Below are positions 37,752 to 57,924 of a stretch of 64,000 nt of DNA, piece by piece (positions within the stretch are counted from its first letter, which is position 1; each line of letters opens with the position of its first letter). A program made the translations under genes and the position numbers. This DNA is from Letharia columbiana. Lineage: Eukaryota; Ascomycota; Lecanoromycetes; Lecanorales; Parmeliaceae. The stretch is taken from contig NW_023501080.1 of the NCBI RefSeq assembly GCF_014066305.1, forward strand, positions 186,001 through 250,000, in the 5' to 3' direction. Under the pieces are notes generated by a model. It saw only the letters and a list, made by a program, of their open reading frames with translations, was not told the DNA's origin and made no database searches.

Positions 37752-40070
37752 TTAGGTGGCAGTAGCCTGGGGCACCCCGTTTGTGAGCGAGCCATATGGC
37801 ACTGCAGGATAATTCCCGTTGCAAGCATAATTGTACTGCGCGGCCGCCAGAGATCCGGCCTGGATGTTCAAAAAGGTTGACAGCTCACACCACCCATCCG
37901 TCCTGTTACCGCACGAAGGGAAGCTTGGCCCGAGAGGGAGCGTCCTCTGGTTCACCAGGAAATGTACATAGTTGGTAGGTGGTCCTGATGTATAGGCATT
38001 CGCTGCCGTGGTACGATTGGCGGCGACGGGTTGTGGGGCCTTGATTATCTCTATGTCGATGCGTGCTCCAAAAGGTTGAAGATGGGATACGATGAGCTGC
38101 TGATTTGCTGGCGGTCCGGTGGTCGGCAAGAATTGTGCGAATTGGGTGAAGCCGAAAGCGGTCAGCACAGCTGCGAGGTTGGTGTCATGCGAAAAGTCGA
38201 AGTAAAGGGTCTGGTTTAGCGGGAATGTGGCAGTGTTGTTGTCGAGAGTGATGTTGGCTTGAGCTGTGGCTGTATTCAACGTGTGGTTGTTCACTCTAGC
38301 CAGGAACTCTTCGACATATCCTATGCCAACTGCGCGACCGGTTGGTGATTGGAAATAGTCGCCTCCGGCAAAGGATAGATCAATGGAGTATTCAAAGTCG
38401 AGCCATTCCTGGTAGGTGAACAAATCGCAAAACGAAGAGTAGCCAAAAGCTACAGTCTCGTACGGGCAGAGCGTTTGTGCACTGTGTTCAAAGTCAGTAT
38501 GCAGCCATCGGAAAGCGGTCCCCGCGACTCACTCGTAGGCATCGGCAGTGGTCCAATTGAAAAATTTGCCAGAAAGAGCGTTGAGACGTGCTGTGGCATT
38601 CTTGAGATAACTTGCTGTCCAAATGGCGGTGGCATTGTCCCCTCCTTCATTCACAGCAGTGTTGCTATTGTTACAATTATCATATCCCGCAAGGGTGACA
38701 TTGTCAGGATTGATGAAATTTCCTTCAATGATAACCTCTAATGTGGCGTTGTTCGTCCAACCTGTGGGAGTCAGCATTGGCCGACTAAATTCGACACTCC
38801 TACCGCTTAAGAAAAACTTACTGAGACCGAAGAAGCCTGCCATAAAATACTCCGCACTCTTCACTATACTTTCAAAGAGTCAGCATTGCTTCATCAAGGT
38901 AACAACCGAGTAACGAAATAGCCCGAAGAGGTATTGAGAGCGTTTTGCTCCGGGAACATGTCTCGCGACTCGTAGAGTGATCCAGATACGAAGCATTTGC
39001 TCCGAAAATGTACATACCGGTCTTGCGTGGTGGTCCGAGCGATGATTTTGGTGGAAGTATTGTATAGATGCCCGTAATCATAGTAGTGGAGCACACCGGA
39101 GTCGAAGAGTTCTTGTTGTCCAATGGGGACCAAGATCTCAACTCCAAGGCCGTAACTGAAAGAATTCAGGAAAGCAAGTTGTCCAGTGAAGTTTGCAGTT
39201 TTGTTCGCGGCCTACGGAGATTTTGGAGTCAGCATTACTTCTTAAATGCGAGAGTCTGAGTAGCGAGAAAAGGATAAAGGGTGGCCAGTCTCATTGTTAG
39301 ATGTCTTGCGACTTATGCACTGGTACAGAATAGGAAGAACTGATAGCCGGAAGTACGTACCAAAGCTGTCAGTGTTGCCCCGAATTTCTGAACGCCACTA
39401 TTTGATGTCGGATAGCGACTCCCATGGCGGTGCAGCATGTGGAGTTGGGTGATATTGGCTCCAGCAGGAAGAGGTATTTCGTTGACACCAAACCCACTGC
39501 TGCGTTTAGCGGGCTTCTGCCATAAGAATTGCTCGCAACGAACCTGGGGTTTGGGAAGTATGGGCTCACGTTCCCCATTTGCTGGAAGATACTCGCATTC
39601 TGAGTGTTGCCAACGATAGGTATCGCGGTCTCAAGAGGGTGGTTAGCAACGAACGAGGCTACTCCGAAGGGAGCGGGGTTGCTCTGGGCCAGGAAGGGCG
39701 CACGCCCTGTCGCAGTTGGACCTTTTGACCAGTCAATTGATGAGCAATTGAATTTGTGAGATGTCAACATACCGGCGAACAGTTCGGGAGTAGTTTGAAA
39801 GACTTGAGGCACCCTAGTAGTGCTAGAGCTAGCCGTCGAGGCAGCTTGCTTCTTCTCAAGGACAGCTGCGCGCGTCAAGCTGAGCGCCGACAGCAGCACA
39901 AGGAAAGCAATTAACATCTTGATCGCCCAAGAAGTCGTCTTTGGGTGCCGATGGAAGAAGTTTTGGGGTAAAGGAAGCTCTTCTTTGGCAGTCTCTGTCA
40001 GAGGTAGGTCTTGTAGCTGAACATCGTCGGGACCTTGCAGCTTTTTGTAACTGTAGCCCATATTGGTCAT
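37752..40070 (-). CDS. histidine acid phosphatase / phytase-like, membrane-anchored or secreted
   Basis: Minus-strand exons are 39773-40070, 39544-39721, 39361-39499, 39018-39211, 38822-38868, 38533-38761 and 37752-38481, giving 604 residues. The phosphohistidine motif RHGSRYP lies at about 183-189 and the proton-donor HD pair in FDFSHDTN near 460. ARTTTQDR, SAEYFMAGFFGL and SPTGRAVGIGYVEE are family blocks. Many N-glycosylation sites (NAT, NTS, NNT) fit a lumenal or extracellular enzyme. The first 55 residues precede a hydrophobic segment MLIAFLVLLSALSL, so the protein is either a type II membrane protein starting at 40070 or begins at the ATG of that segment with a signal peptide. Introns 38869-39017 and 39212-39360 are unusually long and related to an alpha-galactosidase intron. 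The donor at 39543 is GTTCGT. Confidence 0.92.
38869..39017 (-). repeat. introner-like element (intron of the acid phosphatase gene)
   Basis: A 149-nt intron that aligns over almost its full length with the 153-nt intron at 56885-57037 in the alpha-galactosidase gene. Shared blocks in order (minus strand): gtacatt(t)tcgga just after the donor, gacatrttyccggagca then raasgctct in the centre, and aagcaaygctgactc at the branch site. Host exons are unrelated. Introner-like elements of this kind are known from Dothideomycete fungi. Confidence 0.75.
39212..39360 (-). repeat. diverged introner-like intron (acid phosphatase gene)
   Basis: Also 149 nt. It starts gtacgtacttccgg, has ttcttcctattc as in the alpha-galactosidase intron (ttcttccttttc) and gtcgcaagacat as in the neighbouring phosphatase intron (gtcgcgagacat), and ends with aatgctgactcc at the branch site. 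The central ccggagca block is not recognisable. Confidence 0.5.
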
Positions 40071-40128
40071 CGTGCAGACCACCTTCCTTGTTAAGTAACA
40101 TCATCAGGGCACGTGTTTCAGACAATGA

Positions 40129-56007: not shown

Positions 56008-57924
56008 TTACAACTCATCCCTCTTCCTCATCCCACTCCCACCACCTTGAGATCTCAAACGATACACCGCCACCCCGTGACTGGGTACGGTAGTGCTCAG
56101 CGTTCCCATCGGCGCCATGGTCTTGACTTTGATCCCGAACAAAGCCGCGTTGTTCGCGTTTAGCCCGTCTGCGTAGCTGAGCTGCGTAGCATTGTATGTC
56201 TGCATTGGTAACGTCGAATTGGCACTAGCTTCGCTCGTAGTGTTGGTACTATTTGTTTCCATGGTAAAATTCCCATTGATGATGGCTTGGGCGGTGGTGT
56301 TGCTCATTCTGTTGGCCCAAAGGTCGTATACGTCGTATGTCTGCTGGAGTTGAGGTACGGGGGCGTTCGAGCCAGTAGTGACTAGATCGATGAAAACGTC
56401 GTTCATGGTGGCAGTCAGCGTGGTGGCTTTTGGGCCTCCGTTTACGAATGCAACAACATAATCGCCATTCATCAACTCGCCAGTCCAGAATGACGTTTCC
56501 CCAGCGGTGTAGGCATCGACGGAGTATGTTTCATTCTGGGGTTGCGCGGGTGATTGCCAAACACGCGTAACGGGCACACCAAGCGGGTCCTGATTGATCG
56601 CGATAATGGCGGGATTTGAATATATAGAGAGAGTCTCAGCTATCATCATGGTCACGTCGGTGCCCATGATCAGCGGAGACTTGGCTAAGGCCCTGAATCT
56701 AGGTCAGCTCACACGCCGGAGGTTGGCATCAAGCCAGACAATGTACATACCACATGCTGAAGTGCGTCTTGTATTCATCATCCGTCATACCACTATTGCC
56801 TACTTCCAGCATATCCAAGTCGTTCCACGCTCCTGGCTGAGCCTTGTTCAGAATAGGAGCCGCCTTATTGAGAATATTCATGACCTGCGCACATCTCGGA
56901 GTCAGCGTTGCTTTCCAAGGCAAAACCCAGGCTCGCAAGACAGGTCTTGGGAGTAGAAAGAGCCTTCTGCTCCGGAAATATGTCCTGCAACTCCGAATTC
57001 GCATTGAAAAGGAAGAAATTTTCCGAAATGTACGAACCGAGCAATGAAATCCAGGCAAGCTGCACTCATACGTATCGCACGGGCATCGACTATCAGGCCG
57101 ATCAAATGAGTCGTACACATCACCACTCATCCTCCAACTGTTGGCTATTGTCTGGGCCCAGTCCCATGGAGAGTCCTGCCCCCAATTGCACATCGAGTAG
57201 AGAATGGGCCGGCCTTCGGGTGTCAGCCCAAGTCCACACCGAACCCTGGGGATATTACCTGTAGCATTGAGCGCATCCGACATTGCCTTGTACCGATTGT
57301 ATGTGACAAGGGCCGTCCCTTCCTGTCCCTCATTGTAGCAGTTGTCGTACTTGAGATAATCGACCCCCCAATCGGCGAATGTTTGGGCATCTTGTTTCTC
57401 CACTCCCAAAGATGCGGCTGCTCAATCTCAGTTTTTGTCACATTTGTAGGCAATCTGACCATGACTCCGTACCGTATTGCGCGCAAGTGTATTTCCCAGC
57501 AGAGGAATACATGCCCCACCCGAGCCCCATGCCATGAATCTTTTCCGCAACCGCTGGAATTCCATCTGGGAATTTGGTACTGTTTGCCTGGAGGGTACCG
57601 TTTGAGGTCCTGCCGCTGGACCAACAGTCGTCTAGGATGATGTAGTAGTAGCCTGCAGACACATATCAGCATCCCTCTCTTTGCTCCGTTGCATGCTGCA
57701 GGATTCCTACCAAGATCGCGTAGCCCCAACTCAACAATCTTTTGAGCGGTAGTAAGGATCAGCTCCTCGCTAACCTTACACCCAAACGCATTCCAATTAT
57801 CCCATCCCATTGCAGGCGTAAGGGCCAGCCCATTGTAGCTCGAGGTACCGGCTGCATGGCCTCGAAGGGCTGGCAGCAGCAGCGCTGCGGTGGTGGCTAG
57901 CCAGGTAAAGGATAGACGTGCCAT
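56008..57924 (-). CDS. alpha-galactosidase, glycoside hydrolase family 27
   Basis: Minus-strand exons are 57711-57924, 57473-57652, 57259-57417, 57038-57213, 56751-56884 and 56008-56692, giving 515 residues. A signal peptide (residues about 1-25, LATTAALLLPALRGHA) leads into LALTPAMGWDNWNAFGC, the GH27 start. The nucleophile is D156 in DYLKYDNC and the acid/base is probably D216 in SWRMSGD. ILDDCW and GAWNDLDMLEVG line the sugar pocket. It removes terminal alpha-1,6-galactose from melibiose, raffinose or galactomannan. The C-terminal domain is beta-rich and N-glycosylated. Oddly the protein ends MRKRDEL, and RDEL resembles an ER-retrieval signal. The fourth intron (153 nt) is introner-like and has a GTTCGT donor. 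Confidence 0.94.
56885..57037 (-). repeat. introner-like element (intron of the alpha-galactosidase gene)
   Basis: A 153-nt intron in phase 0 between HCS and VMNIL. It aligns over most of its length with the phosphatase intron at 38869-39017, although the two host genes are unrelated. It is about two to three times longer than the other introns of the same gene (48-60 nt for most). Confidence 0.75.

What the first reader, a model, noticed from the sequence alone, without database searches (positions are those of the whole stretch)
38869..57037. Two unrelated genes share a homologous intron: introner-like elements
The 149-nt intron 38869-39017 (acid phosphatase) and the 153-nt intron 56885-57037 (alpha-galactosidase), both on the minus strand, align nearly end to end. 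Shared blocks include gtacat.ttcgga at the donor side, gacatrttyccggagcar followed by aasgctct in the middle, and aagcaaygctgactc at the branch site. I estimate well over half of positions match. The flanking exons encode different proteins and do not match. Introns copied into new genes (introner-like elements) are known in Dothideomycetes, so this genome probably carries a family of them.
Basis: partly seen in the sequence, partly recalled or inferred. Interest (0 to 1): 0.82.

Follow-up and report, generated by a model that had tools for sequence, protein, structure and literature searches.

The report
Copying introns in a lichen fungus
Two genes here share an intron because a mobile intron about 155 letters long has copied itself, without leaving a scar, into coding sequence all over the genome of what is probably a lichen-forming fungus, which gives a fresh case for asking how new introns arise.

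Summary
The two introns match at 98 of 158 columns (z about 9 against 1000 shuffles). A third copy, 39212-39360, lies in the same acid phosphatase gene. Genome-wide, 163 sites match the 3' end (0 in control) and 167 the 5' end (11 in control). Copies run splice site to splice site, neighbours lie on the same strand (51 to 1), and spliced proteins have no gap at the junctions examined. All 11 alpha-galactosidase orthologues fetched lack the intron. Introner-like elements: supported. The implied Dothideomycete: not supported; nearest named homologues of two genes are lichen fungi, Lecanoromycetes.

New details: terminal inverted repeats of about 16 nt next to the terminal Gs, where a survey reported none in ascomycete introners; no duplication of 3 nt or more above chance; and lineage-specific insertion sites. 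Of 59 young copies, the 30 with a paired A-T end enter C|A in 21 cases, the 29 others in none. Sixteen of the 21 split a Gln/His codon. The copying mechanism is inferred; RNA-linked insertion is favoured.

The parts
56885..57037 (-). introner copy, 153 nt, 'GTTCG' lineage, in the alpha-galactosidase gene; exon junction G|G
   Evidence: 39 genome places, itself included, 18 of them covering exactly bases 1-153; 126.5 bits, E 1.2e-27; spliced protein gapless at the junction; absent from 11 of 11 orthologues fetched
57021..57036 (-). 5' arm of the terminal inverted repeat (intron bases 2-17)
56886..56901 (-). 3' arm of the terminal inverted repeat
56899..56906 (-). branch-site block GCTGACTC, shared by the three window copies
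   Evidence: that it is the branch site is inferred from the usual fungal CTRAC consensus (recalled)
38869..39017 (-). diverged introner copy, 149 nt as spliced, in the acid phosphatase/phytase gene; inherited end probably at 38864
   Evidence: 6 places, itself included; 46.7 bits, E 6e-9
39212..39360 (-). third, more diverged introner copy, 149 nt, 194 nt upstream of the second in the same gene
   Evidence: (36.3 bits, E 1.7e-6)
56008..58032 (-). alpha-galactosidase gene, approximate extent (GH27)
37752..40100 (-). histidine acid phosphatase/phytase-like gene, approximate extent

Best explanation
The introns are copies of a family of introners (introner-like elements): short mobile spliceosomal introns, mostly about 155 nt, that carry both of their own splice sites and the branch site, and that have been copied whole into coding sequence at many places in the genome of a fungus that is probably a lichen-forming Lecanoromycete. 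A new copy enters with no target-site duplication of 3 nt or more, in the sense direction, and the spliceosome removes it so that the protein is unchanged; copies then decay into ordinary introns. SHOWN: family, ends, copy counts, strand, seamless junctions, empty sites in relatives, symmetry, site preferences. INFERRED: the copying step. My preferred step is insertion tied to transcription and RNA: an excised intron (lariat or opened) is put back between two exon bases, by reverse splicing or by ligation into a break, and is copied into DNA. The near-palindromic form may protect the excised RNA or bring its two end Gs together. I give the RNA-linked step about 0.55 on its own; the confidence below is for the introner identity with the properties marked as shown.
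For: Copy counts: 163 sites for the 22-nt 3' end at up to 3 mismatches, 0 in the control; 167 for the 17-nt 5' end at up to 2 mismatches, 11 in the control; 141 against 2 for an internal block. One copy as query: 40 of 101 candidates scored, all 40 begin at its base 1. 126 copies in 282 kb held, 0 on the same sequence reversed. Neighbouring copies within 1200 nt: 51 same strand, 1 opposite (sign test 2e-14). Of 100 copies with GT..AG bounds, the spliced junction with 60 nt each side has a stop-free sense frame in 89, antisense in 62; among 59 young copies the sense frame is the longer in 52, the antisense in 7. No gap at the junction against solved structures in alpha-galactosidase, acid phosphatase (two junctions), a Rab GTPase and malic enzyme; in 7 of 10 further spliced proteins a Pfam domain above cut-off spans the junction. 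Empty site in 11 of 11 alpha-galactosidase and 15 of 15 monooxygenase homologues fetched. Direct repeats at the exon ends: k=3 in 1 of 100 (expected 1.5), k=4 to 8 in none.
Against: No RNA data: splicing is inferred from homology and frame. The site choice differs by lineage (C|A against G|N), which a generic reverse-splicing step would not predict. The symmetry shows no sense-RNA signature: G.U 563 against A.C 525 opposed pairs (p 0.26), sense strand the more stable in only 36 of 100 copies. In one register G|G junctions exceed shuffled pairing, 27 against 17.8, so a 2-nt repeat cannot be excluded for the G|G copies. Seven of 59 young copies have the longer open frame antisense, and 5 of 59 have no sense frame of 80 codons. 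Copies were sampled by similarity, not at random; intergenic copies were not searched for without bias.
Confidence: 0.93

Rival explanations
1. The copies are non-autonomous DNA transposons (MITE-like) whose terminal inverted repeats are cut and pasted by a transposase that leaves no target-site duplication; they were selected to splice, and antisense copies were purged.
For: Inverted repeats directly inside the terminal Gs: in young copies at least 12 of 16 bases match in 40 of 60, control 0 of 2000 random 16-mer pairs. The symmetry is equal on both strands. Lineage-specific insertion site C|A. TIRs without TSDs are reported for introners of a choanoflagellate, Acanthoeca (passage).
Against: No target-site duplication of 3 nt or more above chance. 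For the C|A copies the outer bases differ in every simple register, and homologous proteins keep the split codon, so even a 1-nt duplication is unlikely (inference). 51 to 1 strand agreement and 54 of 59 young copies in a sense frame of at least 80 codons are hard to get from blind DNA insertion. All 32 exact 17-nt end sites in sequence held begin an introner, none a longer element. No autonomous partner was sought with a transposase search.
Confidence: 0.3
2. The similarity comes from shared splice and branch motifs in unrelated introns.
For: All three window copies share GTxxGTAC and GCTGACTC; the block GCTGACTC occurs 12 times in the window against 2.8 expected, partly at other sites.
Against: Local alignment beats 1000 shuffles of the same dinucleotides; middle blocks outside the splice signals recur 141 times against 2 in control; end-to-end copies of 80-91% identity.
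Confidence: 0.01
3. The copies are old introns spread by gene or segmental duplication, lost in relatives.
For: One pair (contigs C109 and C77) is identical with its flanks, so duplication or assembly redundancy does occur.
Against: Flanking genes are unrelated. The alpha-galactosidase site is empty in 11 of 11 orthologues fetched, while at least 6 of those ORFs read through other introns, so they are unspliced genomic frames.
Confidence: 0.02

Closest known systems
Introner-like elements of Capnodiales (Dothideomycetes): Fulvia, Dothistroma, Zymoseptoria, Passalora
   Same: High-copy spliceosomal introns longer than ordinary ones, in unrelated genes, recent gains, several families per genome (PMC4457414, parts 1-3 of 4 read). 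Symmetry or stable folding and seamless insertion, according to PMC8469720 (passages).
   Different: Different class of fungi. PMC8469720 says that van der Burgt et al. reported AG/GY sites there (passage); here one lineage prefers C|A. Sequence kinship could not be tested: no sequences of those families were held, and the original 2012 paper is not held.
Symmetrical sister stwintrons and cropped introns of Hypoxylaceae and Xylariaceae
   Same: Terminal inverted repeats (45-55 nt, or near-terminal 10 nt), seamless insertion, no TSD, coding strand only (PMC8469720 and PMC12403724, passages).
   Different: Those are nested twin introns or derive from them, with integration sites described as random and without nucleotide bias. 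Here single introns, with sharp lineage-specific sites.
Introners of diverse eukaryotes, survey by Gozashti et al. 2022
   Same: Introns similar over their full width, enriched in genes; TIRs in 72 of 177 families; TIRs without TSDs in Acanthoeca (PMC9860276, passages).
   Different: That survey states that ascomycete families have no TIRs or TSDs, with 6 nt or more as its TIR criterion. This family has about 16 nt of TIR and no TSD, in an ascomycete. The survey's supplementary tables were not seen.

Membership tests
Introner / introner-like element | Sequence-similar introns at unrelated sites in unrelated genes | tested here: met
Introner / introner-like element | Similarity runs from splice site to splice site and stops at the exons | tested here: met
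   18 of 39 cover bases 1-153 exactly; 40 of 40 scored start at base 1; flanks at shuffle level
Introner / introner-like element | High copy number | tested here: met
   163 against 0; 167 against 11; 141 against 2
Introner / introner-like element | Newly gained: absent from orthologues of relatives | tested here: met
   two sites only, 11 of 11 and 15 of 15 homologues fetched; homologues are metagenome ORFs or annotated proteins, not DNA alignments
Introner / introner-like element | Spliced from the transcript | not testable with these tools
   no RNA data; supported by frame and homology only
MITE-type (DNA transposon) introner | Terminal inverted repeats | tested here: met
   at least 12 of 16 in 40 of 60 young and 3 of 40 old copies, 0 of 2000 controls
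MITE-type (DNA transposon) introner | Target-site duplication | tested here: not met
   k=3 in 1 of 100 (expected 1.5), k=4-8 in none; a 2-nt repeat in G|G copies not excluded
MITE-type (DNA transposon) introner | Autonomous transposase with the same ends | not tested
   no transposase search was made; all 32 exact end sites in sequence held begin an introner
[D1,2] stwintron | Donor of an outer intron split by an inner intron | tested here: not met
   the window copies give gapless proteins when removed as single GT..AG introns; other copies not checked one by one
Capnodiales ILE families (cf/ds/mg) | Sequence kinship with the published families | not testable with these tools
   no sequences held; (original paper not held)

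The most novel reading that the evidence does not exclude
The element's own ends choose its site. Copies whose third base and third-last base pair (GTA...TAG, a closed end) go into C|A, most often between the first and second base of a Gln or His codon; copies whose ends are open there (GTA...CAG, GTT...CAG) go after a G. If causal, these introns carry a target preference set by the fold of their termini, a feature that would be new among introners and would separate spliceosome-directed from element-directed insertion.
Probability: 0.25. Interest if true: 0.82.

Novelty: new variant of a known kind. Interest (0 to 1): 0.63.

Why it matters
How introners copy themselves in fungi is open: the survey read here in passages calls ascomycetes the outlier, without TIRs or TSDs. 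This family has clear TIRs, no TSD and a sharp, lineage-specific site. For C|A copies the usual ambiguity of AG|G junctions vanishes, so the insertion point is known to the base. That makes RNA-based and DNA-based models directly testable. It also seems to extend introners to lichen fungi: a search for 'introner' with 'lichen' gave 2 papers, neither about lichen introners by title and abstract, and one combining 'introner', 'Lecanoromycetes', 'Lecanorales' and 'intron gain' showed none among the 15 of 235 listed. The survey's supplement was not seen.

Tried and rejected
Chance similarity of splice motifs: rejected. Target-site duplication in shifted registers: only a 2-nt G|G excess. RNA-structure selection through G.U excess: not found, 563 against 525; in the lineage consensus sequences G.U:A.C is 4:5, 4:6 and 7:2, so no common direction. 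Pair counting on a 20-row alignment: score above all 500 shuffles, but fewer pairs with changes on both sides than the shuffled mean (8 against 9.1), so no good evidence for compensatory change. A longer element with the same ends: none among 32 exact end sites. Rfam: no match for the alpha-galactosidase intron at E up to 1. A codon-score test of orientation was weak: best frame sense in 72 of 100, antisense in 28. Why C|A copies favour codon phase 1 is unexplained; the association was noticed and tested on the same data, so it is exploratory. An unbiased density estimate failed for lack of sequence; from 7 of 34 incidental copies that match the end patterns (95% interval 0.09-0.38) a total of some hundreds to over a thousand copies is a rough inference.
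Full report
OBSERVATION. The two introns are present as described. They align globally with score 115 against a shuffled mean of 51.4 (max 78.5) and locally with 37 against a maximum of 32 in 1000 dinucleotide shuffles. They match at 98 of 158 columns, and their 200-nt flanks do not align above shuffle level. A profile of family members finds a third copy, 39212-39360 (-), in the same acid phosphatase gene, as does a covariance model (36.3 bits, E 1.7e-6).

GENOME. 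The window is C45:186001-250000 of a 52.2-Mb assembly in 161 contigs. The acid phosphatase intron finds 6 places including itself. The alpha-galactosidase intron finds 39 including itself, best other 91%, and 18 of the 39 cover bases 1-153 exactly. A copy from contig C34 gave 101 candidates, of which 40 were scored; all 40 begin at its base 1, at 80-90% identity apart from itself. Pattern counts on both strands: 5' end (17 nt, up to 2 mismatches) 167 against 11 in the backwards control; 3' end (22 nt, up to 3 mismatches) 163 against 0; internal block (19 nt, up to 2 mismatches) 141 against 2. In the 282 kb held, in 71 merged segments, an iterated profile finds 126 copies, 103 near full length, and none in the reversed sequence. 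This sequence was fetched around copies, so it is no random sample.

GENES AND STRAND. Of 103 near-full-length copies, 3 lacked usable ends or flanks and were dropped; 100 remain. With 60 nt of each exon joined, 89 of 100 have a stop-free sense frame and 62 an antisense one; with 90 nt, 78 and 39; with the intron left in (60 nt flanks), 17 and 11. Of neighbouring copies within 1200 nt, 51 pairs lie on the same strand and 1 on opposite strands. Among 59 young copies (profile score of at least 100 bits, one segmental duplicate dropped) the sense frame is the longer in 52 and the antisense in 7; 54 have a sense frame of at least 80 codons, against 27 antisense and 1259 of 2000 random window positions.

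SPLICING BY HOMOLOGY. Removing the introns gives proteins without a gap at the junction against alpha-galactosidases, phytases (two junctions), Rab GTPases and malic enzyme. Ten further spliced proteins from C|A copies, chosen for long frames, were scanned: 7 have a Pfam domain above its cut-off, and in all 7 it spans the junction; one more hit was below cut-off and two proteins had none.

RELATIVES. The best named homologues are Lecanora helva (76%) for the monooxygenase and Lepraria neglecta (73%) and L. helva (71%) for the phospholipase C of the window, both Lecanorales, Lecanoromycetes. One metagenome protein is 99% identical to the phospholipase. Named hits of the alpha-galactosidase search were mostly non-lichen fungi, with one lichen, Dirinaria, among the listed, so the class rests on two genes. 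Fifteen of 15 monooxygenase homologues and 11 of 11 alpha-galactosidase homologues fetched run through the introner site without an insert. At least 6 of those 11 read through other introns, so they are unspliced genomic frames and the site is truly empty there. I fetched 15 and 11 of 120 listed in each search.

ANATOMY. Young copies have a median length of 155 nt. Bases 2-17 are complementary to the last bases before the final G: at least 12 of 16 match in 40 of 60 young and 3 of 40 older copies, against 0 of 2000 random pairs of 16-mers from the same introns. Most young copies and the lineage consensus sequences fold over nearly their whole length; median z of the folding energy is -2.7 over 100 copies, and copies nearer to the profile fold better (rho -0.56). 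But opposed G.U and A.C pairs are equally common (563 and 525), and the sense strand is the more stable in only 36 of 100. So the symmetry is real, while selection on a sense-strand RNA fold is not shown. Pair counting gives no clear compensatory signal.

INSERTION SITE. Direct repeats of 3 nt at the exon ends occur in 1 of 100 copies (1.5 expected), of 4-8 nt in none; G|G junctions are commoner than shuffled pairing gives, 27 against 17.8. Of 59 young copies 21 sit at C|A, where the coding background is 7.2% (p 3e-10). All 21 belong to the 30 copies with GTA...TAG ends; the other 29 have none (p 3.6e-9). Copies beginning GTT have G before them in 12 of 12 young cases. Sixteen of the 21 C|A copies are in phase 1, in codons CAA 8, CAC 4, CAG 3, CAT 1, where 26% would be expected (p 3e-6). 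Phase was taken from the longest open frame. End type and site may both be marks of one lineage rather than cause and effect.

AGE. The closest copies at different sites are 96.8% identical (C4 and C21); the median nearest-neighbour identity is 84%. The family was active fairly recently and has older strata.

MECHANISM. Seamless entry, sense strand, coding sequence and exact splice-site ends fit an RNA-linked step, as proposed for fungal introners (PMC8469720, passages). TIRs and the lineage-specific site fit a DNA element, but the missing duplication and the strand agreement do not. I prefer the RNA-linked step at about 0.55, a TSD-less DNA element at about 0.3, and leave the rest open.

LITERATURE SEEN. 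PMC4457414: parts 1-3 of 4. PMC8469720, PMC9860276, PMC12403724 and PMC3510045: passages only. Others: search listings only. Van der Burgt 2012: not held, known only through other papers.

Noticed in passing
L019:1501-1800; L060/L082 around 1392-1649; contig C12 segment 1107757 around 1362-1655: Two pairs of introners abut exactly, with no exon base between them, and one pair is about 1 nt apart. Insertion at an existing 3' splice site may be favoured; the chance expectation was not computed.
   Followed up: partly
window 56885-57037: The alpha-galactosidase introner is 153 nt and stop-free in the gene's frame (the ORF 56729-57421 runs through it), so retention would add 51 residues and no stop.
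   Followed up: no
window 57214-57258: A second, 45-nt stop-free intron in the same gene (LNATG|RPILY); one orthologous ORF, P0241, reads through a 15-residue insert at the same place.
   Followed up: partly
contigs C109:29719-29873 and C77:208424-208578: Identical introner copies with identical near flanks: a segmental duplication or assembly redundancy.
   Followed up: no
window, GCTGACTC at 38768-38775 (-), 28972-28979 (+), 9802-9809 (-) and others: The extended branch-site block occurs 12 times in the window against 2.8 expected, also in introns not recognised as introners: possibly worn-out copies.
   Followed up: no
window 55495-55588: Perfect tandem duplication of 47 nt.
   Followed up: no
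window 34918-35032 and 1-66: Simple arrays of (CATCT)n and of GAGTCAA-like units.
   Followed up: no
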